DNA from: a virus
Strand: one strand, 5' to 3'
IMG/VR virus record: IMGVR_UViG_3300009159_000048
Coordinates: 1-64,000 of that record
DNA length: 64,000 bases
Shown: positions 3,174-24,773 of the stretch, in pieces
Position numbering within the stretch: position 1 is the first letter of the stretch
Layout of the letters: each line of letters opens with the position of its first letter
Notes under the pieces: generated by a model
Seen by the model: the letters and a program-made list of their open reading frames with translations, nothing else
The model's database searches: none
Told to the model about the DNA's origin: nothing
Translations under genes and position numbers: made by a program

Positions 3174-5222
3174 TTATTTACCAATTTTACTTTTCAAGTA
3201 ATTGTTTACTTCATCTTTTTTATCAGATGGTAATTTTTGAGAGTGTGCTATCCACAGAATAGCTTCATTCCAATCTTTTTCTTGGAATTTTCCAGAAAGA
3301 CCAGACTCATCTAAATAATTAAGAATATCCATTCTTCCATATTCAGCAGCCCATTTAACAATCATATTTCTACCTCTATCATCTTGTACTTTCGCACCAT
3401 ATTTTAATAATAGTAAAAAGGCATCATAATAAGACTCACCGATATCACTTACAGAGCGCCAAGTTCCTTTAGTTACTTTTCTCCAAGGTAAGAAATTATT
3501 AAAAGATGGATCTAATCCAGCTTTAAGACAGAAATCTAATGCATCTGGTTGACCCATTACTTGATTAAATACATCACCTGTCATATCAGATCCATATGTA
3601 ACAAGTAATTTAATCATTTCTAAGTCTTTAGCCTTTGATATAGAAGCGTCTGCTCCTTTTTTAAGATTCGGTGAAGCTCCTAACTCTAAACAAACTCTAG
3701 CCTTTTCAACATCACCTTCTTCAACAGCATTTTCAAGAGCTTTAGCATTATCTTTGTTTATGTCAGCACCGTCTTCCTTAACATATTTTTTAATTTGTTC
3801 AATAGTAAGACCTTTTCTAATAATCTCTCTTTCTGCAATTTTAGCTCTTTCTCTTCTGTCAATTTCTTCAGGAGTCATTGCTTTAAGACAATCATTAAAA
3901 ATATTAATTTCTAAATCATTTTCACTTTCAAATTTATTCAATACTGATTTAAAACTATCCGCGACATTTCCATCATTTTTTTGGTGACAAGCTCTACCAT
4001 AACCGTGACTATAAATTTCAGCACCACTATCTGAGCTTTTATATCTATCAGAAGTTGAAGACTTACCAGGAGCAATTGTAACACCAATAACAGATAAATT
4101 ATCTGTTTGTGAAATATTAAAGTTATAAACATAATATTGTTTATTATTATGATTAGATACATAACTTTGCCATTGAGACATAGAATCTTTTATACAGTGT
4201 CTTGTATGACCATTTAAGAATTGATTTGCTTGAAAAGACTTAACTTCTAAAACTAATATACCATTCTCATCAAATACAATATCAGCTCCCAATCGACCAA
4301 ACTTTTCATTACAAGAATTAATCTTATCATAAAATGCCATAATACTATCATTCTCAGAAGATTTTAAGTGGTTCTTAGCCGCTTTTATTAATTCTCTAAT
4401 AGGATTATCCATATGCTCAAATCTTCTTAAAGATGAAGACCAAACCATTTTATTAAAGTTAGGATTAGGTTTACCATCAGGTAAAACTGGATTAGTATCT
4501 AATTTCATTTCACCAAAGAATGACTTCCAAACTTTTTCTTTTTTATCAGCAGGTACTTGGTCAAAACCACCGGCAACCTCAGCCATTTGTTCTTTGAGAT
4601 TCTCAGGAGCCTTGTTATACTCAGATTTTAATTTAGATGAAAAAGTATCAATTATTTTTTTGACCTTTCTATATTCTTCTAAATAACTAAGACCATCAAT
4701 TAATATCTCAGCATTATTATCAACATTAGTATCGATAAAGTTAGCATCAAACTTCTTAGGTAATCTATCTAAAAGGCCTGAATAATCTATCAGTTTAGCA
4801 AAAATATTGGTCTCTTCTCCAGTAGCAACATCTTTGCTCGTAAATAAGTCTTCCATAGAAACCATTTCAACAAAGTAAAAGTAAGTAAATGCATAAGTCC
4901 ATCCAATATACTTAGAACCTAAGTATTCTCTGATTTTTAAGAAGTCTGGATCTCTCTCAACTCTTCTTACATCTTCATCAGGTAATCTTAGTTCTCTTAA
5001 CTTAGTTCTAATTTCAGTTTGTTCTTCTTCTGAAAAGTCTTTTAATTTAAGACTTCTTTTTTCTTTATGATCTAATTGGTCTTTTAATTCACCTTTAATA
5101 AGACCTAATTCATCAGATGCAACTTTTAATAGTTCTCTTTCTTTCAAGAATTTTTTAGCCTTATCAAGATTCTCATTAATTGATTTATCTCCTAAAAATT
5201 GATTATACTTATATAACTTCAT
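3174..5222 (-). CDS. N-terminally tagged protein with PcfJ-like centre and ankyrin-like C-terminus
   Basis: 682 residues. It starts MKLYKYNQFLGDKSINE, one of the many tag-like N-termini in this window (possible capsid-targeting peptide). The first ~280 residues are charged and helical. The middle (about 320-420) has NGHTRHCIKDSMSQWQ and later KQYYVYNFN, resembling the R-H-C-I/V motif region of PcfJ-like phage proteins. Residues about 480-660 contain degenerate ankyrin-type repeats (ARVCLELGASPN, MIKLLVTYGSDM, AFLLLLKYGA). Ankyrin repeats mediate protein binding, so a host-directed role is possible but is inference. It is the last gene of a three-gene minus-strand unit headed at 7040. Confidence 0.6.
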   Translation of the reverse strand: MKLYKYNQFLGDKSINENLDKAKKFLKERELLKVASDELGLIKGELKDQLDHKEKRSLKLKDFSEEEQTEIRTKLRELRLPDEDVRRVERDPDFLKIREYLGSKYIGWTYAFTYFYFVEMVSMEDLFTSKDVATGEETNIFAKLIDYSGLLDRLPKKFDANFIDTNVDNNAEILIDGLSYLEEYRKVKKIIDTFSSKLKSEYNKAPENLKEQMAEVAGGFDQVPADKKEKVWKSFFGEMKLDTNPVLPDGKPNPNFNKMVWSSSLRRFEHMDNPIRELIKAAKNHLKSSENDSIMAFYDKINSCNEKFGRLGADIVFDENGILVLEVKSFQANQFLNGHTRHCIKDSMSQWQSYVSNHNNKQYYVYNFNISQTDNLSVIGVTIAPGKSSTSDRYKSSDSGAEIYSHGYGRACHQKNDGNVADSFKSVLNKFESENDLEINIFNDCLKAMTPEEIDRRERAKIAEREIIRKGLTIEQIKKYVKEDGADINKDNAKALENAVEEGDVEKARVCLELGASPNLKKGADASISKAKDLEMIKLLVTYGSDMTGDVFNQVMGQPDALDFCLKAGLDPSFNNFLPWRKVTKGTWRSVSDIGESYYDAFLLLLKYGAKVQDDRGRNMIVKWAAEYGRMDILNYLDESGLSGKFQEKDWNEAILWIAHSQKLPSDKKDEVNNYLKSKIGK

Positions 5223-15680: not shown

Positions 15681-16388
15681 TTATAAATTATTTAATAGGT
15701 TTAATCTTTTATCAATAATGTCAAAATAATTTTTATCCTTTTCGATTAAAATAAAATTTCTATTAAGATTAACACAAGCATGGCCGGTTGTACCAGTACC
15801 AGCAAAACAATCCAAAACAATATCTCCTTCATTACTGTGTTTTTTTATTAAATCAGAAATTAAACTTAAAGGTTTTTGTGTTGGATGTGAATATCTTTCT
15901 TTACCATGACATATTGGATAACTATAATAACCATTATCATATTCAGAGTTAAAAGTTGGTTTTTTTCCCTTTACGAATGTAAAGAAGTACTCAGCAGCAT
16001 TAGATAAATAATTGATTTTAGAATTAACAGGAACAGGATTTGTTTTCATCCAACAACAAACTCTGTGTTGATTGAACTTATATTTATCAGCACATTCTTT
16101 AAGTTCAGTAGATTTCCAAACATCATAAAAAATTACTAAAGTTCCACTGTTTTTTAATACTCTTTTAAATTGTAAAAATAAATTTTCCCAATCAATTTCT
16201 TTTTTATCCCAATCACCAAAATCTATCGAGATATTATATTTAGTCTTTAATTCATCAGGTGTGTTTAAAGAATGTTTTTTAAAATTAGAAGACTTTGATA
16301 TGTTATAAGGAGGGTCAATAATAATAAGACTTACTGAATTATCGTCTACTTTAAGAATTTCTTCATAACAATCACCAAAAATAATCAT
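15681..16388 (-). CDS. N6-adenine/N4-cytosine-type DNA methyltransferase
   Basis: 235 residues with the beta-class order of motifs: catalytic motif IV DPPY at residues 25-28 (LIIIDPPYNISK) near the N-terminus and the SAM-binding motif I FAGTGTTG at 195-202 near the C-terminus, with SHPTQKPLSL just before it. These enzymes transfer methyl groups from SAM to adenine N6 or cytosine N4. DPPY favours adenine. No restriction partner is nearby, so it probably protects phage DNA from host restriction or acts in regulation. A CTAATATATA element lies 4 bases upstream of the ATG. Confidence 0.85.
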   Translation of the reverse strand: MIIFGDCYEEILKVDDNSVSLIIIDPPYNISKSSNFKKHSLNTPDELKTKYNISIDFGDWDKKEIDWENLFLQFKRVLKNSGTLVIFYDVWKSTELKECADKYKFNQHRVCCWMKTNPVPVNSKINYLSNAAEYFFTFVKGKKPTFNSEYDNGYYSYPICHGKERYSHPTQKPLSLISDLIKKHSNEGDIVLDCFAGTGTTGHACVNLNRNFILIEKDKNYFDIIDKRLNLLNNL

Positions 16389-16450
16389 AATTTATATATT
16401 AGACGACATGAGGCTTCTATAAAAAAATATATAAAATAAAAATATACTAT

Positions 16451-17215
16451 ATGAGTATATCAGGATTCTTAAAAGGAATTTTAAACTTACAAAAGAAAGT
16501 AGATTTGAAATTACTACCTTCACAAGGTTTATTTTATAAAGATGATTTTCAACTTTACATAAAGAAGGTAGATTTAACAGATATAATCGAATACGAATAT
16601 AAATATGTAAAAGAAGATTTAGGATTAATCATATCCAAAGTAAAAAAAATTGTTGAGAAAAGTATAATTATAAAAAATGATTATACATTTGATGATATAA
16701 AAAGCGTTGATATTATTTTTTTATTCTTAGAAATAGTTAGATTCTCAAAAGGTAAACCAATAGAAATAGATTATATAGATTCAGGAATAGATAAGAAAAT
16801 TGAATTTAACCCAATATTTTTTAATTACTACAAAATTGATGAATCTACAATGAATCATTATGATGAGGTAAACAAAGAATTTTTTATTGATGATTATAAA
16901 TATTCATTACCAACTATCGGAGTTGAGAACTCACTTACTAACTTTTTAATACACAAGTCAAAATCAATAGACTCAGCATCATACAATAACTATTCATATG
17001 ACTTTACATTTTTTGTTAACGGTAAAAATGTACTATCGTTTTCGGAAATTGAAAATCTAATACAAATATTTAACTTTGATTTAGAAGAAGATGAGAAATT
17101 GAAAATTAAAAAAATAGTAAATAAATTCCAACCTTTACAAAAATACTCACTTATCAAAAATGGAAAATTTATTGATATAAATTCTAAAATAGATTTAGAA
17201 AATATTTGGAAATAA
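16451..17215 (+). CDS. Baseplate hub protein, T4 gp26-like
   Basis: 254 residues. The N-terminal LKLLPSQGLFYKDDFQLYIKK followed by VDLTDIIEYE resembles the LPS-x-G-x-x-Y signature of the T4-like baseplate hub subunit gp26/gp51 group. The rest is alpha/beta and acidic. In T4 these proteins take part in assembling the central baseplate hub. It stands alone on the plus strand between minus-strand genes and ends at a bidirectional hairpin. The assignment rests on the N-terminal signature. Confidence 0.5.
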   Translation: MSISGFLKGILNLQKKVDLKLLPSQGLFYKDDFQLYIKKVDLTDIIEYEYKYVKEDLGLIISKVKKIVEKSIIIKNDYTFDDIKSVDIIFLFLEIVRFSKGKPIEIDYIDSGIDKKIEFNPIFFNYYKIDESTMNHYDEVNKEFFIDDYKYSLPTIGVENSLTNFLIHKSKSIDSASYNNYSYDFTFFVNGKNVLSFSEIENLIQIFNFDLEEDEKLKIKKIVNKFQPLQKYSLIKNGKFIDINSKIDLENIWK

Positions 17216-17217
17216 AA

Positions 17218-17238
17218 AAACCCACTAATAGTGGGTTT
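17218..17238. terminator. Bidirectional terminator hairpin
   Basis: AAACCCACTA / TAGTGGGTTT between the convergent baseplate gene and the Ro60-like gene. Confidence 0.8.
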
Positions 17239-17242
17239 AATT

Positions 17243-18697
17243 TTAGTTAAGTTTAATAGCATTAATCTCATTGTAAAGAGCCTTCTTGTCTAACTCCATC
17301 ATCTTCATTATATCAAAGACTTTGTCGCTGAAGCCAGCTAAAGCAAAGACGTTTTGTTCTGGAAATTGAAGTGTAGAATATCCAGCCAAATCCCAAGAAT
17401 AAACATAAGGATTAGCTCCAAACTTACTCTTATAAGACTTAAACTCAGAAGCTGGTGAAGTATAACCAACCCAACCTTGCATATCAGAAAGGATTATAAT
17501 TCGGTCGTACTTTTTGTTAGCCTTTTGGAAAATAGAACGGAAGTTTGTACCACCACCAGAATATCTGAATGAGTTTCTAATAGTCATAACAGAATCCATT
17601 GGATTATAAGACTTATAATCAGCATTGGTAGCAAATGTCATAACATCACAGCTATTAGCCTTTGCAACAATAGATCCAAATAATGAATCTATTTCAGAAG
17701 GTCTACCACTCATAGAACCAGAAACGTCCATAACAAGTAATGTTTCACCATCAAATTTAGGAACATTCTGGACCGAAACTTCAAGTGCTCCATTAATAGC
17801 AACAAGAACGTCACGAACTTCTTTAGAAGAACCAATTTTGTTGATTTCTTCATAAGCGGTCGCAAAACGGAATGGTAAAACTCTAGATGATTTAATCATC
17901 TTTTCATCTACCAACATTTCACAAGCCGCCTTTACAGAAGAAGGTGATTGATTAATAATATTTCTTAGATTTCTAAGAAGTGCAAAATAACCAATCTTTC
18001 TTGTTGAAATAAGTTCAGACCAAGCATCTGACTTCAACTGAGCCAAATCTTGTTCGGAATCGGATTGTTGACCTACAGCAGATAACTTAGATTCCCAAGT
18101 ATCTGTTGATTTCAACTCACCTTTTATAAGAAGTTCAAGAGCTTCTTTATTTCTTTGAGTTGGAACAGGATGAACGATGTTAACAATGTCAACCAACTTA
18201 ACTTCTTTATTCTCTCCTTTATATTTGGACAATTGATATCCATCAAATTTATCAAAAGCTTTAGCAAATCCTTTCTTTAAGGAGTTTGGAAACTTTGGAT
18301 TTTCTTTATCGGTTTTATAAGCCAAATAGTAAGAAAGAATCTCAGTCATATCATCAACACGAACAACTACTTTGTTGTAAAAATCTTTACCCCACTCAGC
18401 TCCATTCAATTGTGAAGTTAATTCAGCAGCAAGTGCATGTGTCACAGAACGCATTCCGAATTTGTCTCTTGCAAAAATAGCAGATTTAGCAATAAATTCC
18501 TTGTCTTTAATCTTTTCTGATAATTTTTTCAAATCACTCAATGTTGTTTGAGCATTTTTGTAGAATTGGTCATTAACAAAAGAAGTTAGCAATAAAGATA
18601 CAAGAGCCAATTCATTTGACTGTGAATAAGCTTGACCACCGGCTAAGTTTTCGGTAAGTGTTTTTTGCTTTGGTAATGTTGTGTTAAATTTTGACAT
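17243..18697 (-). CDS. Ro60/TROVE-domain RNA-binding protein
   Basis: 484 residues. The N-terminal ~300 residues form the all-helical TROVE ring (FARDKFGMRSVTHALAAEL, HPVPTQRNKEALELLIKG, LRNLRNIINQSP). The C-terminal part is a vWA domain with an intact MIDAS: DVSGS at 324-328, T384 in GGGTNF and D405 in LSDMQG. Ro60 orthologues bind misfolded RNAs in the ring cavity and Y RNAs on the outer surface, and in bacteria Rsr can tether PNPase. The gene lies 50 bp downstream, in the same orientation, of a ~400-nt structured RNA. No promoter is visible between them. Orthologues are known in some mycobacteriophages. Confidence 0.9.
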   Translation of the reverse strand: MSKFNTTLPKQKTLTENLAGGQAYSQSNELALVSLLLTSFVNDQFYKNAQTTLSDLKKLSEKIKDKEFIAKSAIFARDKFGMRSVTHALAAELTSQLNGAEWGKDFYNKVVVRVDDMTEILSYYLAYKTDKENPKFPNSLKKGFAKAFDKFDGYQLSKYKGENKEVKLVDIVNIVHPVPTQRNKEALELLIKGELKSTDTWESKLSAVGQQSDSEQDLAQLKSDAWSELISTRKIGYFALLRNLRNIINQSPSSVKAACEMLVDEKMIKSSRVLPFRFATAYEEINKIGSSKEVRDVLVAINGALEVSVQNVPKFDGETLLVMDVSGSMSGRPSEIDSLFGSIVAKANSCDVMTFATNADYKSYNPMDSVMTIRNSFRYSGGGTNFRSIFQKANKKYDRIIILSDMQGWVGYTSPASEFKSYKSKFGANPYVYSWDLAGYSTLQFPEQNVFALAGFSDKVFDIMKMMELDKKALYNEINAIKLN

Positions 18698-18746
18698 AAC
18701 TTTTATTTATTTTTATTAATTTTATTTTTGTTCTTAAACTTTTTAT

Positions 18747-18789
18747 AAAAAAAAAGACCAGACTAACATCTCTGTTAAATCTGGTCTTT
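18747..18789 (-). terminator. GNRA-capped terminator of the noncoding RNA
   Basis: On the minus strand a 10-bp stem AAAGACCAGA / TCTGGTCTTT encloses TAACA-GAGA-TGTTA (a GNRA tetraloop) and is followed by nine T residues. Confidence 0.85.
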
Positions 18790-19144
18790 ATATAATGTTG
18801 CAAACAAGATAATTTAGCCTGAGCGTTACAAAGAATTCTCCCAAAAACTTTGCCGATAGTTAGTGACCATCTCACTTGACCCTTACGTGGTATCTTTCGG
18901 ACTTTTTCACCTCAGTCCATCTTTCAGGATCTTTTCGGTAGTCTTAGCTGTCGCCATAGACACTCTTCATCATAGTTGTAAATTTAAGTACGAAGTATCT
19001 CAAACTATCGCTATGTTTGCTTAATAAACTATATATTGACCAGAGTAAACTGATAAAGAGTGTTTTTTCAATCCGCGAAGTAACTCTCTATCTCACTACT
19101 GGAGTAGTTTCTTTTATTAGTATGTTAAAGAACGTTTTACTTTT
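18747..19144 (-). ncRNA. Structured noncoding RNA upstream of Ro60, candidate Y-type partner RNA
   Basis: No convincing gene lies between 18698 and 19310. A host-type promoter (19151-19182) should start a transcript near 19144, and a strong terminator ends it near 18747. The RNA is less AT-rich than its surroundings and can fold: 13-bp long-range helix (19051-19063 with 18960-18972, one G-U pair), hairpins 19095-19108, 19001-19019, 18899-18918, 18862-18876 and 18829-18852, plus a GNRA-capped terminator stem. The best coding frame (63 aa) crosses the terminator and is not gene-like. Position next to Ro60 suggests a Y RNA or another Ro60 client. It is longer than ordinary bacterial Y RNAs, and a phage large-RNA class of the GOLLD/ROOL kind is an alternative. 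Confidence 0.7.
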
Positions 19145-19150
19145 AGTTGA

Positions 19151-19182
19151 CAAAATTAAAAAGTTTAATCAACGTTGACAAA
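19151..19182 (-). promoter_or_regulatory. Bacteroidota-type promoter for the noncoding RNA
   Basis: On the minus strand TTTG (19182-19179), a 20-base spacer, then TAATTTTG (19158-19151), matching TTTG-N17-23-TAnnTTTG. It overlaps two direct copies of GTTGACAAAAT on the plus strand (from about 19146 and 19174), which might be an operator. Confidence 0.6.
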
Positions 19183-19220
19183 ATTTTTAATTTTTTTTCT
19201 TAAAAGTAGATTATATATCA

Positions 19221-19258
19221 ACCCTCAAAATTTCGATTTTTTCGAGGGTGGATTTTTT
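19221..19258 (+). terminator. UUCG-capped hairpin oriented as a plus-strand terminator
   Basis: ACCCTC-AAAAT-TTCG-ATTTT-TTC-GAGGGT, then GGATTTTTTA. The T tract is on the plus side only, although no plus-strand gene is seen upstream; it may stop antisense transcription. Confidence 0.5.
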
Positions 19259-19265
19259 ATAGCAC

Positions 19266-19292
19266 AAAAAAAGGAGAAAGTTTTTTCTCCTT
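19266..19292 (-). terminator. Terminator of the 129-aa tagged gene
   Basis: AAGGAGAAA / TTTCTCCTT stem followed on the minus strand by a run of seven T residues, 19 bases past the stop codon. Confidence 0.75.
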
Positions 19293-19310
19293 AAATATTT
19301 TATTTTAATT

Positions 19311-19700
19311 TTATTCAAAATTCTTTAATATAGAATCTAAAAGAGGACTATCAAATTGACTATCAATATAAGCCATTTCAATTAAACCACCTCTATAATC
19401 ATCCACCTCATTAAAAAGGTTAATCAAAGCAGGTGAAGCATTACCAGCATATTCATCATCTAAAGAAGCTCCTGTTTTTGATTTGAATTCATCTTTTGAT
19501 GAATAGATATCAAATTTTTTATTACCGGCTCTTCTTTCATATATCTCACCATTATTCATTAATAAGATAAGGTTTGTATCAGAAAGTAAATCAGTTAAAA
19601 AAACATTAATTCTAACTCCATTATTTAAGAATTCATTTATTTCGTTTTCATTGATTTCTTCGTCTTCAATTGATTCATTGAATTTTCTCAAGTGTTTCAT
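19311..19700 (-). CDS. Tagged acidic protein of unknown function
   Basis: 129 residues starting MKHLRKFNESIEDEEINE, a clear member of the tagged set, with I-N-E at a possible cleavage site. The remaining ~110 residues are acidic, with GVRINVFLTDLLSDTNLILLMNNGEIYERR forming probable beta strands. No family recognised. Monocistronic: a TTAATATATA element lies 25 bases upstream and its own terminator downstream. Confidence 0.6.
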   Translation of the reverse strand: MKHLRKFNESIEDEEINENEINEFLNNGVRINVFLTDLLSDTNLILLMNNGEIYERRAGNKKFDIYSSKDEFKSKTGASLDDEYAGNASPALINLFNEVDDYRGGLIEMAYIDSQFDSPLLDSILKNFE

Positions 19701-19725
19701 ATTTATAATTGTTTTTTATAAGAGT

Positions 19726-19735
19726 ATATATTAAA
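19726..19735 (-). promoter_or_regulatory. TTAATATATA element, candidate phage late promoter
   Basis: Exact minus-strand TTAATATATA 25 bases before the ATG at 19700, directly after the nrdA terminator. Confidence 0.45.
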
Positions 19736-19767
19736 AAAAAAGAGAGACTTTTCAGTCTCTCTTTTTT
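19734..19767 (-). terminator. Terminator after nrdA
   Basis: AAAAAAGAGAGACT / AGTCTCTCTTTTTT with loop TTTC, immediately downstream of the nrdA stop. Confidence 0.85.
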
Positions 19768-19772
19768 AATGA

Positions 19773-22319
19773 TTAAGCTCCACAAGCCAAACAATCGTCT
19801 GGGTTATCAAGTGAACACGAGATTTCAGACATTTGGTCTTCAACTGATTTCTTAGACTCTTCTTGAACAGTGAACTTAACAGCATCTGATGCTGATTTGT
19901 TTCTCAAGTAGTAGATACCAGTTTTTAGATTGTTTTTCTTTTCTCTATAGAATCTTGGTTTACCATCTTTATCATAAACAACTTCAATATTATCTCCTTG
20001 TGGAATAATTGGTTGTCCATTAGAATCCATCATAAAGTTTCTACGACCCCATCCATAAAAGTGCATTGAAGTTAATTTAGCAAAATTAGGAGAATCCATA
20101 AAGATATTCATTGATTGTGTTTGGTCAATGAAAGCTCCTCTATCAGCAGCCATATCAATAACATCTTTTTGTTTAATCTCATAAACAGTTTTGTAAATCT
20201 CTTTCAAACTAGTTGGTACTTCTTGAATATTCTGAACAGATCCATTTTCAACAACAATCTTTCTTCTTAAATCATCACTCCAAACTCCTAACTTAACTAA
20301 TTCCTTAACTAAGTATTTGTTTACTAAGATAAATGTACCAGAAAGAACACCTCTTGTGTACATATTTGATGTTTGTGCCTCACAAGATGCTTCATTACCT
20401 AAGATAGATGCTGTAGAAGCAGTTGGCATGATACAAGTTGTTAAAGAGTTTCTAACACCGTGTTTCTTAATGTCTTCTCTTAATTTATCCCAATCCCATC
20501 TTTTAGTAGGTTTAGTATGCCATAAATCAAATTGGAAATTACCTTGAGAAATTGGAGAACCTTTATATGTTGGATAAACACCTTGTTCTTTAGCTAAATC
20601 ACAAGAAGCTTTCATCGTAGCGTAATAGATAGTTTCAAATATCTCTTTGTTTATAACTTTTGCTTCTTCTGAATCATAAGAAATACCAGTCATAAAGAAT
20701 ACGTCTGCTAATCCTTGAACACCTAATCCAATAGGTCTGTGTAATAGGTTAGAGAATCTAGCCGCCTCAGATGGATAATAATTAACATCAATTACATTAT
20801 TCAAGTTAATAGTAGCTGAATAAGCAACTTCATACAATTTATTGTGATTATAAGTTTTATTTTTATTAACAAACTTAGGGAGAGCGATTGAAGCCAAGTT
20901 ACAAACAGCAGTTTCATTCACAGATTCTCTACCATAGAAATCACCTAATCCAATACTTTCAAGTAATTCTTTATTATTAAGAATTTCTTTTTGTATTTTG
21001 GTGACACCTGTTGCCTCAACGATTTCAGCACATAAGTTAGAACTTCTAACAATACCAATGTTAGATTGATTAGATTTCTCATTGATAGAATCTTTATAAA
21101 GAATATAAGGAGTTCCTGTTTCAATTTGAGATTCTAAAATTTTATTCCAAACTTCTCTAGCTTTAAGAGTTCTCTTAACTTTACCTTCTTGTTCATACTT
21201 AATGTAAAGATTTCTAAATTCTTCACCGTAAGTTTCATTCAATCCAGCACACTCATGAGGACACATTAAAGACCAATCTTCATCTAAGTCAACTCTTTCC
21301 ATAAATAGGTCATTCATCCACATAGCTAAGAAAAGGTCACGAGCTCTAATCTCATCTTTACCTTGATTTTTTCTTAAATCTAAGAATTCCATAATATCAC
21401 CATGCCAAGGTTCCATATAAATAGCGATTGAACCTTTTCTTTTACCACCTCCTTGGTCAACCGCTCTTGCAGTTTCATTGAAGATTTTCAAGAAAGGTAT
21501 AATACCATTTGATGAACCATTTGTACCAGCGATATAAGTTCCCTTAGATCTAACTTTATTGAAAGAAATACCAATACCACCCGCGTTTTTAGAAATCTGA
21601 GCTGATTCTTTAAGAGTATTGAAAATACCTTCGATTGAATCAGATTCTGTGTCTAATAAGAAACAAGAAGACAATTGAGGTCTACCTGTACCAGAGTTGA
21701 ATAATGTTGGAGTTGCATGTGTGTAAAATCCTTCTGATAATGTGTTATATGTTTCGATAACTTTTTCAAGATTCTCACCCCATATCTGTAGAGCGGTTCT
21801 CATATACATATATTGAGGACGCTCAGCGACTCTGCCATTGATTTTCAACAAGTAAGATTTCTCTAAAGTTTTAAATCCAAAGTAGTCAAAGTTGTGGTCT
21901 CTAGAGTGAACGATCGCAGAGTCTAATTCATCAGCGTGTTTTTTGACAATGTTACGAAAATCCTCAGATACAATTGGTGAGTGTTTACCCGTATTAGGAT
22001 CCACATACTTATACAAATCAGAAACTGTTTCCGAAAAACTCTTCTTTGTTTCTTTGTGTAAAGCGGTGATTGCTAATCGAGCTGCCAATACCGAATAATC
22101 TGGGTGTTTTGTAGTCAACGAAGCCGCTGTTTCCATTGCTAATTGGTCTAACGTAGATGTTAAAATATCTGGAGCTACTCCCGCGATTACTTTTTGTGCT
22201 ACATCAAAAGGTGAAATCCACTTCTGATCCAATCCATAAGTTTGTTGAGTAATTCTGTCTAAAATTTTGTCTAACATTACCGGTTCTTTCTTTCCATTTC
22301 TTTTTATTACTTTTATCAT
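19773..22319 (-). CDS. nrdA: Ribonucleoside-diphosphate reductase, large (alpha) subunit
   Basis: 848 residues. Reduces ribonucleoside diphosphates to deoxyribonucleotides together with a radical-bearing NrdB subunit, which is not in this window. The N-terminus MIKVIKRNGKKEP begins an ATP-cone allosteric domain. The three active-site cysteines are in LSSCFLLDTESDS, SNLCAEIVEAT and ETAVCNLASIALP, matching C225, C439 and C462 of the E. coli enzyme. The radical-transfer and catalytic loop NAGGIGISFNKVRSKG is intact. The C-terminal tail ends CLACGA, the shuttle cysteine pair. No intron or intein is visible. It lies at the 3' side of the helicase operon with 121 bp between it and the acidic protein gene. 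Confidence 0.95.
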   Translation of the reverse strand: MIKVIKRNGKKEPVMLDKILDRITQQTYGLDQKWISPFDVAQKVIAGVAPDILTSTLDQLAMETAASLTTKHPDYSVLAARLAITALHKETKKSFSETVSDLYKYVDPNTGKHSPIVSEDFRNIVKKHADELDSAIVHSRDHNFDYFGFKTLEKSYLLKINGRVAERPQYMYMRTALQIWGENLEKVIETYNTLSEGFYTHATPTLFNSGTGRPQLSSCFLLDTESDSIEGIFNTLKESAQISKNAGGIGISFNKVRSKGTYIAGTNGSSNGIIPFLKIFNETARAVDQGGGKRKGSIAIYMEPWHGDIMEFLDLRKNQGKDEIRARDLFLAMWMNDLFMERVDLDEDWSLMCPHECAGLNETYGEEFRNLYIKYEQEGKVKRTLKAREVWNKILESQIETGTPYILYKDSINEKSNQSNIGIVRSSNLCAEIVEATGVTKIQKEILNNKELLESIGLGDFYGRESVNETAVCNLASIALPKFVNKNKTYNHNKLYEVAYSATINLNNVIDVNYYPSEAARFSNLLHRPIGLGVQGLADVFFMTGISYDSEEAKVINKEIFETIYYATMKASCDLAKEQGVYPTYKGSPISQGNFQFDLWHTKPTKRWDWDKLREDIKKHGVRNSLTTCIMPTASTASILGNEASCEAQTSNMYTRGVLSGTFILVNKYLVKELVKLGVWSDDLRRKIVVENGSVQNIQEVPTSLKEIYKTVYEIKQKDVIDMAADRGAFIDQTQSMNIFMDSPNFAKLTSMHFYGWGRRNFMMDSNGQPIIPQGDNIEVVYDKDGKPRFYREKKNNLKTGIYYLRNKSASDAVKFTVQEESKKSVEDQMSEISCSLDNPDDCLACGA

Positions 22320-22440
22320 GCTTATTATTTAATTTTTTTTGTTTGTTATATATTGTTGTTGTTTTATATCCAAAAAACTTCAAAATTGATTTTTAAGAGG
22401 TTTTTTATATTGACAATTTTTAATTTTTTTCAATTAGTTT

Positions 22441-23403
22441 TTACAAAAAGTCTATGTTGTTTAATTTATTTAAGTTATACTTAAATTTAGTATTATTTAA
22501 AATTTTTGTTATTTTTTCCAATTCAACTTCATAAATATTTTCATAAGAATCTACTTTAAATACTGAAGATTCATAATCAGTTTCTATCACAACTCCAGTG
22601 ATAAGTTTCTCTTCTTCAAACTCATCAATCCAAAGAAATTCTATTTCTGTACCTTGGTAAATATTTCTATTTGTAATTTCTTTTGAGTTTTGAGTTTTAC
22701 CAATATGGTCTTGTAATTCTGAAATAATTAAATTTCTCCATTTGTTATCTAATAACTTAAACATATTGAATAGATTATCAGAGAAGTAAATAGCTAACTC
22801 ATTGAATAATTCAATATTTGTAAAACTCTCATCTTTTAAGTCACCTTTTAATAACGAGTAATAATTGTTAAAATCGACTCTAGATGGCTTTCTTCTATTA
22901 TTAAGAAAGTTAATAGAAGTGTTTTGTTTTAATACATCATAAACTCTTTCTTTAACCAACTTAGCTCTTACATAAGACTCATTGTCAATAGATTCGGTGT
23001 GATAAGATGATGATTTATCTACTTCAATGCTATCTTTTCGATAGTTAACATAACCATCCAAAGAATCATCTTCTGTATTTTCTTCTTTTTTACCCTTAAA
23101 AATAGAATCATATTTTAATGAGTGTTTACCTTCGATTTTGTGTTTAGATAAAACAATACTCTCATCCTCTTCTGTGGTCGGTTTTGGTTCATCTTCCTCG
23201 GTTAATTCCAATTCATCTTCATCAATTTCAATTATGATATCCATATCAGAATCATCCTCTAGTAGTAAAGAATCACTATCCGAGTCTTCATCTTCCGATT
23301 CATCAGAATCCGGTTCATCCACAAATTCAGAACTTGATTCTTCATTTTCATTATCGAAGTCAGAGTCGAAGTCTTCTTCATCGTCTATACGCTTTTTTGC
23401 CAT
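22441..23403 (-). CDS. Acidic protein between helicase and nrdA
   Basis: 320 residues. The first ~95 are almost entirely D, E and S (DFDSDFDNENEESSSEF and similar), a long disordered acidic tail like those that bind single-strand-binding proteins or mimic DNA. The C-terminal ~190 residues look folded: RVYDVLKQNTSINFLNNRRKP, then a helical region and a beta-rich end. Forty-one bases after the helicase stop on the same strand, so a helicase accessory or loader role is plausible but not shown by motif. Confidence 0.55.
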   Translation of the reverse strand: MAKKRIDDEEDFDSDFDNENEESSSEFVDEPDSDESEDEDSDSDSLLLEDDSDMDIIIEIDEDELELTEEDEPKPTTEEDESIVLSKHKIEGKHSLKYDSIFKGKKEENTEDDSLDGYVNYRKDSIEVDKSSSYHTESIDNESYVRAKLVKERVYDVLKQNTSINFLNNRRKPSRVDFNNYYSLLKGDLKDESFTNIELFNELAIYFSDNLFNMFKLLDNKWRNLIISELQDHIGKTQNSKEITNRNIYQGTEIEFLWIDEFEEEKLITGVVIETDYESSVFKVDSYENIYEVELEKITKILNNTKFKYNLNKLNNIDFL

Positions 23404-23444
23404 AGAAAAATTTTTATTTTTATATAATCCTAAAATTATTTTGT

Positions 23445-24773
23445 TTATTGATCTAAAAACTGATCATTCTCAAGTGTTAGGTAAGTTGAGTTGAGATTAA
23501 TCCTTATCTGTGATTTCAAGAAATCACCATCTCTTTGTTTCAGTAATTTAAATCTGAATAAATTTTGCCTTTTCATTTCTTCTGTTCTAATTATAGCAAA
23601 AAATGTATCAGCAGTCTCAGCAATTGCCTTAGATTCAGGAACACTTTCTAATGTAATATCAGATGAGTTCCAAGCATCTTTTGCAACTTGAACACCAGTA
23701 ATAACTGGACATTGATATTTTGCTCCTAATGCTCTTAATCCCTCTGCTAAGTGTTTACCCTTAGTGTAAAGATTATCAGCACCTAATCCTTTAGGAGCAG
23801 CGACTAATGTTATATAATCAACTATGATTAAGTCTATCTTTATATCTCTTTTTTCTTTTAACTTCTGAATATAATTATCAAAGTCAGCAACTGTAGCCGT
23901 ACCAGCCGCCCAAAATTTACTCATAATCTTACCAACTTTCTTATCAAAAATATCACCACCTTCTGAATGACTCAAAGCAGTGATTTTCTTTTTGATTAAA
24001 TCAGTATCTTTTGATACTGTATCATAATCATTGATAGGAATTTTAAGTCTCATAGCTCCTAATCTTTTCATGACCTTTCTCTCACTCATTTCAAGTGTTA
24101 TGTAAAGAACATTATAACCAGAATCTGCTGATTTAACAGCAAAATTTTGCATCCATAAAGACTTACCATTATTAGTTTCAGCCATAATACAATTAAGTGT
24201 TTGTATATCCCAACCACCACCTAACATATGGTCTAATGTTTCAAAACCACTTCTGATTTTAAATTTAGAACTATCCTGAACGTGTACCTCCGGGTCGTCA
24301 AAGTCAGCACCCATATCTTCATCTTGTACGAAATTTAATGAAGACATTTCATTAACGATAGATTTTATTTTATCAGCGGCTTCAATTGCCTTTTCAAAGT
24401 CAGAGATACTATCAAGATTTCGAGTCTCATCAATAATATCAACAGTTCCAGTTTTTAGTCTATTAGAAAGAACCCAAGCATTAAACTTAGGCTCGATGAA
24501 TTGTTTTTCATCGTATTCTTTTAAGTCTACATGAAGTATTGATTTTAAGATTTCTTTTGTGATGATTCCTTCTTTATCTTCTAAGTTGACCATGTCAAGT
24601 ATCTGTCTAGGAGTAGGAACAGCAATATCAGATGACTGAACCATATAACTTCTAACAACACCATAAACAAATTGTATTTCAGAATTTCTGAAAAAATATG
24701 GTTTAACTACATCAAAAAACTTTTTGTACTTTAGAATATAATTGAAGAAAACTTTCTCTAACTGAGGGGTCAT
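23445..24773 (-). CDS. DnaB-family replicative helicase (T4 gp41-like)
   Basis: 442 residues. The RecA-type helicase core follows a ~165-residue N-terminal domain. The Walker A loop is AETNNGKS (198-205), where the first glycine is replaced by alanine. Walker B is IDLIIVDYITL. Typical DnaB segments are SGFETLDHMLGGGW ahead of the P-loop, LYITLEMSERKVMKRL after it, and a C-terminal LLKQRDGD-type motif. It unwinds the fork 5' to 3' and would contact a primase, which is not in the window. T4 gp41 is 475 residues, so the length is normal. Confidence 0.88.
   Translation of the reverse strand: MTPQLEKVFFNYILKYKKFFDVVKPYFFRNSEIQFVYGVVRSYMVQSSDIAVPTPRQILDMVNLEDKEGIITKEILKSILHVDLKEYDEKQFIEPKFNAWVLSNRLKTGTVDIIDETRNLDSISDFEKAIEAADKIKSIVNEMSSLNFVQDEDMGADFDDPEVHVQDSSKFKIRSGFETLDHMLGGGWDIQTLNCIMAETNNGKSLWMQNFAVKSADSGYNVLYITLEMSERKVMKRLGAMRLKIPINDYDTVSKDTDLIKKKITALSHSEGGDIFDKKVGKIMSKFWAAGTATVADFDNYIQKLKEKRDIKIDLIIVDYITLVAAPKGLGADNLYTKGKHLAEGLRALGAKYQCPVITGVQVAKDAWNSSDITLESVPESKAIAETADTFFAIIRTEEMKRQNLFRFKLLKQRDGDFLKSQIRINLNSTYLTLENDQFLDQ

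What the first reader, a model, noticed from the sequence alone, without database searches (positions are those of the whole stretch)
17243..19182. Phage Ro60 protein with a co-oriented ~400-nt structured RNA
A complete Ro60/TROVE protein with an intact MIDAS lies 50 bp downstream of a noncoding region with its own host-type promoter (TTTG-N20-TAATTTTG), a 13-bp long-range helix (19051-19063 with 18960-18972), at least five further hairpins and a GNRA-capped terminator. Ro60 proteins work with Y RNAs, and bacterial rsr genes are often beside Y-RNA genes. This RNA is about three times longer than usual bacterial Y RNAs, so it may be a new class of Ro60 partner or a scaffold RNA.
Basis: partly seen in the sequence, partly recalled or inferred. 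Interest (0 to 1): 0.88.

Follow-up and report, generated by a model that had tools for sequence, protein, structure and literature searches.

The report
Tandem Y RNAs beside phage Ro60
A large phage carries its own copy of Ro60, a ring-shaped RNA-binding protein, and just upstream of it two small partner RNAs (Y RNAs) in tandem, one of which has replaced the usual tRNA look-alike part with a new knotted RNA fold, which suggests that phages re-tool this RNA-handling machine for other partners.

Summary
The ORF at 17243-18697 (-) is a full-length Ro60 with an intact MIDAS; its modelled fold matches solved Ro60s, the best being that of Thermus phage phiLo. The structured RNA upstream is not one 400-nt RNA of unknown class. 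It is two tandem bacterial-type Y RNA modules, Y1 (19102-19040) and Y2 (19020-18800), followed by one terminator. Both carry a Ro60-side signature (outer stem / URGYGA / stem / WUACUUCG ... / 8-nt NNUUNYCY) that recurs upstream of Ro60 in most phage and many bacterial relatives, with strong covariation. A covariance model built from phage Y1 finds Y RNAs beside bacterial Ro60 genes, all on the Ro60 strand. The proposed 13-bp helix exists only in this sequence and is rejected. The 'host-type' promoter is not conserved; a different upstream element is, and in related phages it also precedes head-protein genes. What is new: Y2 lacks the tRNA mimic of YrlA and carries a covarying, pseudoknotted 167-nt domain. 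Large relatives carry more Y modules in their tRNA arrays, including tRNA-Gln and tRNA-Asn genes interrupted by a circularly permuted Y hairpin. New variant of a known kind; binding and expression are untested.

The parts
17243..18697 (-). Ro60/TROVE protein, 484 aa, vWA domain with intact MIDAS
   Evidence: ORF; Pfam; PDB profile search; AlphaFold2 pLDDT 82.8; Foldseek
18746..18789 (-). Intrinsic terminator: stem capped by AACA-GAGA-UGUU, then U-tract; closes the Y RNA transcript
   Evidence: same GACCAGA..UCUGGUC hairpin in most close relatives
19040..19102 (-). Y1: hairpin-type Y RNA module. CCAG | UAGUGA | GAUAGAGAG | UUACUUCG-loop | CUCUUUAUC | AGUUUACU | CUGG
   Evidence: parse; covariation (45 both-side cells vs 9.6 in shuffles, 0/500); CM R1
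18800..19020 (-). Y2: Y RNA module with a large insert. GCAAACA | UAGCGA | UAGUUUGAG | A-UACUUCG | 167-nt insert | CUCAGGCUA | AAUUAUCU | UGUUUGC
   Evidence: parse; covariation of the closing core (0/500)
18824..18990 (-). Effector insert of Y2: pseudoknotted domain in place of the YrlA tRNA mimic
18938..18963 (-). Insert stem a: GUGUCU .. AGACUAC (one bulged U), capped around GGC-GACA-GCU
   Evidence: alignment: the pair next to the bulge is U-A, C-G or A-U in every member
18855..18876 (-). Insert pseudoknot PK-a: stem AGUGA/UCACU whose loop GAUGGU pairs with downstream ACUAUC
   Evidence: (window included): 19 both-side cells vs 4.3 in shuffles, 0/500 for the segment
18829..18852 (-). Insert 3' hairpin CAAAG-UUUUUGGGAGAAUU-CUUUG
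   Evidence: CAAAG/CUUUG, CGAAG/CUUCG, CAGAG/CUCUG, UAGAG/CUCUA among relatives
19212..19263 (-). Conserved upstream element CUAUAAAAAAUCCACC..hairpin..GGUUGAUAUAUA, probable phage promoter
   Evidence: also upstream of head maturation protease and major head protein genes in related phages

Best explanation
The locus is a phage-encoded Ro60 ribonucleoprotein: a Ro60 ring protein and, upstream on the same strand, one transcript unit that carries two Y RNA modules in tandem. Each module has a Ro60-side stem made by its own two ends: outer stem, conserved internal loop URGYGA / NNUUNYCY, inner stem, then WUACUUCG. Y1 ends in a short A-rich loop. Y2 continues into a pseudoknotted domain of 167 nt that stands where YrlA RNAs carry their tRNA mimic. 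Inferred mechanism: the Y stems dock on the Ro60 ring, as in known Ro60-Y complexes, and gate access of other RNAs to it. The Y2 domain acts as the tether that recruits a partner, either a host nuclease such as PNPase or another RNA-handling factor, so that structured RNAs of host or phage are processed during infection. Shown here by comparison: protein identity, modular RNA structure, association with Ro60, covariation, absence of the tRNA mimic from this transcript. Inferred: binding, expression, partner and function. The confidence given is for the identity and anatomy; I put the gate-and-tether mechanism itself at about 0.5.
For: Ro60: TROVE; PDB profile matches to Xenopus Ro60 5.9e-22 and D. 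radiodurans Rsr 8.5e-16; the model matches phage phiLo Ro60 at 5e-18, Xenopus, human and Rsr. The same two-module RNA lies upstream of Ro60 in about 20 distinct relatives, among them a 634,780-bp phage, LR745206. The signature is about 1.4 per kb upstream of phage Ro60 against 0.002 per kb on the opposite strand. The same signature occurs in 53 of 79 bacterial Ro60 loci (a few of these parses may be chance). A covariance model from phage Y1 gives 40 matches at E<0.1 in those bacterial loci, all 40 on the Ro60 strand; the best are 9e-8 and, in Hymenobacter, 2.7e-7. Rfam YrlA falls, below its cut-off, on tRNA-bearing members of the same module family (1e-5 to 0.015), and best-parsed examples show T-arm, acceptor hairpin and D-arm in the YrlA order (L058). 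Covariation: Y1, Y2 core, insert. DNA patterns specific for the insert or the Y2 5' side found only Ro60-bearing phages apart from clear coding matches. Role of Y RNAs as gate and tether in RYPER: PMC4726728, PMC8394870.
Against: No RNA-seq and no binding data. The window RNA itself reaches no Rfam family. Neither module carries the tRNA-like domain typical of YrlA. No PNPase/RNase PH or RtcB gene was found in 14 phage records, so any nuclease partner must come from the host. Several records are fragments. The window copy of Y2 is a reduced one: it lacks the second pseudoknot (PK-b) that most relatives have.
Confidence: 0.8

Rival explanations
1. The RNA is mainly a cis-acting 5' leader: Ro60 binds the Y modules in its own leader and controls read-through of the terminator, so the element is an autoregulatory attenuator rather than a free RNA partner.
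For: The terminator lies only about 56 nt before the ATG, on the same strand, in the window and most close relatives.
Against: In L010 and L011 over 100 nt of other sequence separate terminator and gene. Other phages carry modules downstream of Ro60 or far away in tRNA arrays. Bacterial Y RNAs beside Ro60 are known as free RNAs (PMC8394870). The insert pseudoknots are not near the terminator.
Confidence: 0.12
2. A single ~400-nt scaffold or ornate RNA of a new class that uses the 13-bp long-range helix.
For: 13/13 complementarity in this one sequence; z -2.43 with the terminator included.
Against: The helix is absent from all relatives. Its 5' arm belongs to the covarying Y1 stem. Without the terminator the fold is no better than many shuffles (z -0.83). 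No match to GOLLD, ROOL or HOLDH.
Confidence: 0.03
3. The Y2 insert is a degenerate, neutrally drifting remnant of the tRNA mimic, and only Y1 and the Ro60-side stem of Y2 are functional.
For: Large length variation (160-231 nt) and lineage-specific hairpins; the window copy lacks PK-b.
Against: Compensatory changes in two pseudoknots and the 3' hairpin far above shuffles; the near-invariant stretch GGGAGAAUUC in the 3' hairpin loop across many phages.
Confidence: 0.05

Closest known systems
Bacterial Y RNA YrlA (Rfam RF02553; Chen et al. 2014, cited in PMC12282133 and PMC8394870)
   Same: Gene beside Ro60/Rsr; a stem made by the two ends of the RNA with a conserved internal loop as Ro60 site; modular, with an effector domain beyond it. 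Members of the same module family in other phages and bacteria carry the tRNA mimic and match RF02553 below its cut-off.
   Different: Window Y1 and Y2 have no tRNA mimic. Y2 is 221 nt (YrlA 90-150 nt, PMC8394870) and bears a pseudoknotted domain. The two modules are tandem in one transcript unit.
D. radiodurans Rsr-Y RNA-PNPase (RYPER)
   Same: Ro60 fold (2nvo); the Y RNA as gate and tether is the model adopted here.
   Different: No PNPase in the phage records; the effector domain is unlike; no evidence of nuclease binding.
Thermus phage phiLo Ro60 (PDB 9l5y, 9kop)
   Same: Solved phage Ro60, best structural match.
   Different: 23% identity in the fold alignment; its RNA partner was not examined here.
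Listeria phage CKA15 Rsr-like protein and highly transcribed ncRNAs (PMC12282133)
   Same: Phage Rsr with abundant co-oriented ncRNAs nearby, which its authors propose to be Y RNAs.
   Different: Unrelated phage; those RNAs were not compared here.
Vertebrate Y RNAs
   Same: Stem-borne Ro60 site; a short GUAGUGAG-like wording in Y1.
   Different: No Rfam match; the likeness is short and recalled from memory, so a lead only.

Membership tests
Ro60/TROVE proteins | TROVE domain | tested here: met
   Pfam PF05731 70.1 bits, cut-off 23
Ro60/TROVE proteins | C-terminal vWA with MIDAS (DxSxS...T...D) | tested here: met
   D324, S326, S328, T384, D405 invariant in 18 sequences; the vWA_Ro60 HMM itself is below cut-off (23.6 vs 27.7)
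Ro60/TROVE proteins | Ring-shaped helical-repeat plus vWA fold | tested here: met
   AF2 model matches all solved Ro60s, TM 0.58-0.71 on the query
Ro60/TROVE proteins | Binds Y RNA | not testable with these tools
   needs a binding assay
Bacterial Y RNA (broad sense) | Encoded next to Ro60 | tested here: met
Bacterial Y RNA (broad sense) | Ro60-side stem from the two ends with the family's internal loop | tested here: met
   signature shared with bacterial Ro60 loci; CM R1 from phage Y1 finds them; covariation
Bacterial Y RNA (broad sense) | Is bound by Ro60 | not testable with these tools
   needs co-purification
YrlA (RF02553) | Score above the Rfam gathering cut-off | tested here: not met
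   no hit in the window; related tRNA-bearing modules reach 29-41 of 69 bits
YrlA (RF02553) | tRNA-like domain (D, T and acceptor arms) | tested here: not met
   ARAGORN none in the window; Y1 has a 15-nt insert, Y2 a pseudoknotted insert. Present in other Y modules of related phages
YrlA (RF02553) | 90-150 nt | tested here: not met
   Y1 63 nt, Y2 221 nt
GOLLD / ROOL / HOLDH ornate RNAs | Rfam match | tested here: not met
tmRNA / RNase P RNA | Rfam or ARAGORN match | tested here: not met

The most novel reading that the evidence does not exclude
In these large phages the Ro60-binding stem behaves as a plug-in module that has been joined to different cargo: a pseudoknot domain (window Y2), a short loop (Y1), a permuted tRNA (YrlA type, L216-L218), and whole tRNA genes. 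In tRNA-Gln(UUG), seen in seven phage contigs, and tRNA-Asn(GUU), seen in two, a circularly permuted Y hairpin sits between the D-arm and the anticodon arm. The order D-arm / stem2' / loop3 / outer stem / loop5 / stem2 / UUACUUCG / anticodon arm / T-arm is a circular permutation of YrlA, so YrlA and these tRNA-Y chimeras would be two linear forms of one composite fold. The phage could thereby bring Ro60 to tRNAs as well as to a new partner through Y2.
Probability: 0.35. Interest if true: 0.85.

Novelty: new variant of a known kind. Interest (0 to 1): 0.62.

Why it matters
Y RNAs are thought to make Ro60 useful by tethering it to other machines, and in bacteria the best-known effector part is a tRNA mimic. 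A phage lineage that keeps the Ro60 stem but swaps in a conserved pseudoknotted domain offers a direct way to find a second kind of Ro60 partner. Its use of a promoter-like element also found before head genes predicts late, strong expression. The tRNA genes that carry permuted Y hairpins bear on how YrlA RNAs arose from tRNA and on why Ro60 genes occur in phages rich in tRNAs.

Tried and rejected
Rfam search of the window and region at gathering and at E<=10: only terminator-like and chance matches. tmRNA, RNase P and group I intron readings, considered from short wordings such as AAAAGUCCG, had no support. The 13-bp long-range helix was tested on 24 relatives and rejected. Host-type promoter: the string is present but not conserved; the sigma-70 scan was uninformative. 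The RNAalifold consensus of the whole Y2 set was poor because pseudoknots and indels break it and one row, L067, was a wrong parse; segments were therefore aligned separately. Search for phage PNPase/RNase PH and RtcB: none in 14 records. RF02553 search of the own record: none. Papers describing bacterial Y RNAs in detail (PMC4201824, PMC10870794, PMC3866240) are not held, so the published bacterial Y consensus could not be compared letter by letter. The parser selects for pairing and some of its 95 parses (for example L067 with a 473-nt insert) are doubtful; covariation was counted on sequence-only alignments where possible, and Y2 cores were counted with the insert cut out.

Full report
The window is part of a 94,241-bp virus record. 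The ORF at 17243-18697 (-) encodes 484 aa with a TROVE domain (70.1 bits) and a weak vWA_Ro60 match. In an alignment of 18 phage and bacterial sequences the MIDAS residues D324, S326, S328, T384 and D405 are invariant. A profile finds Xenopus Ro60 (5.9e-22) and D. radiodurans Rsr (8.5e-16) in the PDB. An AlphaFold2 model (pLDDT 82.8, pTM 0.75) matches, by fold, Thermus phage phiLo Ro60 (5e-18), Xenopus and human Ro60 and Rsr. The protein half of the finding is confirmed.

Close relatives of this Ro60 (67-87% identity) exist in many IMG/VR contigs and in the 634,780-bp phage LR745206. The upstream regions of these close relatives carry a related noncoding stretch. Reading them side by side showed that the window RNA is two modules of one kind. 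Y1 is CCAG | UAGUGA | GAUAGAGAG | UUACUUCG..15 nt.. | CUCUUUAUC | AGUUUACU | CUGG (19102-19040). Y2 is GCAAACA | UAGCGA | UAGUUUGAG | AUACUUCG..167 nt.. | CUCAGGCUA | AAUUAUCU | UGUUUGC (19020-18800). The 5' internal loop is 6 nt and the 3' one 8 nt in both.

The same module recurs 1-5 times near Ro60 in most other phage loci, at about 1.4 signatures per kb upstream against 0.002 per kb on the opposite strand. It also recurs in 53 of 79 bacterial Ro60 loci, mostly Verrucomicrobiota and Bacteroidota. The motif was learned from phage loci, so the opposite strand is the fair control. A second test is less circular: a covariance model built only from phage Y1 sequences gave 40 matches at E<0.1 in the bacterial loci, all on the Ro60 strand, and 40 in other phage sequences.

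These modules are bacterial Y RNAs. In several phages and bacteria the insert after UACUUCG is a tRNA mimic. L058 (2241-2500) folds as outer stem, loop UAGUGA/GAUUAUCU, inner stem, UUACUUCG, T-arm, closed acceptor-like hairpin and D-arm, the arms that define YrlA (PMC8394870). Rfam YrlA falls on such modules below its cut-off (1e-5 to 0.015). In phage csAssE-Sib two of three Y modules upstream of Ro60 are annotated in GenBank as tRNA-Tyr and tRNA-Lys. Earlier work had already reported Y RNAs beside Ro60 in bacteria and mycobacteriophages (Chen et al. 2014, as cited in PMC12282133).

Covariation was counted with shuffled and slid controls. Y1: 93.4% of cells paired, 45 cells changed on both sides against 9.6 in shuffles, 0/500. 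Y2 closing core: 98.6% paired, 8 against 1.5, 0/500. The Y2 insert holds three further supported elements. PK-a is a stem whose loop pairs with a downstream strand: in the window GAUGGU with ACUAUC, elsewhere AAUGGU/ACCAUU, UAUGGU/ACUAUA, GAUGU/ACAUC. PK-b, absent from the window but present in most relatives, is a hairpin AAGGAA..UUCCUU whose loop pairs just upstream of PK-a. The third is a 3' hairpin. With PK-b: 45 both-side cells against 14.6, 0/500. Without it but with the window: 19 against 4.3, 0/500. Another insert stem shows U-A, C-G and A-U at one pair in every member. The insert is therefore a maintained domain, not drift. Patterns taken from it found no other home than Y2 upstream of Ro60, apart from coding matches recognisable as such.

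Its first arm is the 3' strand of the Y1 stem. The TTTG-N20-TAATTTTG string lies at 19182-19151 and is not conserved. What is conserved is CTATAAAnAATCCACC..(G)ATATATA, here 19263-19212. In LR745206 a copy lies upstream of a major-head-protein-like gene, in LR756502 upstream of a gene whose product begins very similarly, and in three other phages of the set upstream of a head maturation protease gene (PHROG tests were run on the LR745206 gene and two of the protease genes). So the Y RNA probably uses a phage promoter shared with head genes. This is inference from position only.

A pattern search of whole relatives showed more Y modules far from Ro60, inside the phage tRNA arrays. Three kinds were seen. 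(i) YrlA-type RNAs with a permuted tRNA (L216, L217, L218). (ii) Modules with a T-arm-like hairpin between tRNA genes (L211, L213, L214, L215; similar in L212). (iii) tRNA genes that contain the Y hairpin. In tRNA-Gln(UUG) the parse is GGGGAUG|UA|GCUC|AGUGGUA|GAGA|AAACUAU|CUCUUUUGA|AAUUUUAC|CUC|GUAA|GAG|UGUUGA|UUGAGAGAG|UUACUUCG|UAUAU|UUUGAAA|UUAUA|AGGUC|GUUGG|UUCGAAU|CCAAC|CAUCCCC, seen in seven contigs. A tRNA-Asn(GUU) version is in two. This order is a circular permutation of YrlA. The intended fold is 3.5-7 kcal/mol above the minimum found by the folding program, so chemical probing is needed. The window record itself shows only Y1 and Y2, but it is a fragment.

Mechanism. Established knowledge: Ro60 is a ring that binds Y RNAs by their end stem; in D. 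radiodurans the Y RNA tethers Rsr to PNPase and gates substrate entry (PMC4726728). Applied here: Y1 and the Ro60-side stem of Y2 load onto phage Ro60, and the Y2 domain recruits a partner. The phage records hold no PNPase/RNase PH or RtcB, so a nuclease partner would be the host's. The identity of the RNA is well supported; the partner and the function are open.

Verdict: a known kind of ribonucleoprotein in phages, with a new RNA variant (pseudoknotted effector domain, tandem layout), and a broader and more surprising Y RNA repertoire in the same phages.

Noticed in passing
L202/L210 (G008), L205/L196 (G002), L206 (G001), L201 (G003), L207 (G004), L224, L226: tRNA-Gln(UUG) genes, and in G002 and G008 also tRNA-Asn(GUU), interrupted between D-arm and anticodon arm by a circularly permuted Y RNA hairpin; ARAGORN does not call them.
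   Followed up: partly
L216:613-750, L217:536-671, L218:566-703; L211-L215: Further Y RNA modules inside the tRNA arrays of large relatives, including YrlA-type RNAs with a circularly permuted tRNA.
   Followed up: partly
window 19212-19263 (-); L230, L234, L235, L240, L229: Conserved element CTATAAAnAATCCACC..ATATATA upstream of the Y RNAs, and in related phages upstream of head maturation protease genes and apparent major head protein genes: probable phage promoter.
   Followed up: partly
L019 (phage csAssE-Sib) 1990-2480: GenBank tRNA-Tyr and tRNA-Lys just upstream of Ro60 sit inside Y RNA modules, so they are probably not free tRNAs.
   Followed up: partly
L193:5900-7150, L191:5850-7100: Hymenobacter Ro60 loci with arrays of 6 to 9 parsed Y-like modules downstream of Ro60, with a variant loop (UGCCGU).
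   Followed up: no
L054, L056, L068, L080 Y modules: After UACUUCG several YrlA-type modules continue into what reads as an anticodon-like stem-loop (UCGA-7 nt-UCGA) with different triplets, for example L056 CUGUGGA, L080 CUUGUAA.
   Followed up: no
L010 about 4880-5000, L011 about 4900-5000: Extra 100-140 nt between the Y RNA terminator and Ro60 in two relatives, possibly another small RNA.
   Followed up: no
window 15681-24773: Neighbours: N4/N6 DNA methylase (15681-16388), ribonucleotide reductase large subunit (19773-22319), DnaB-like helicase (23445-24773).
   Followed up: no
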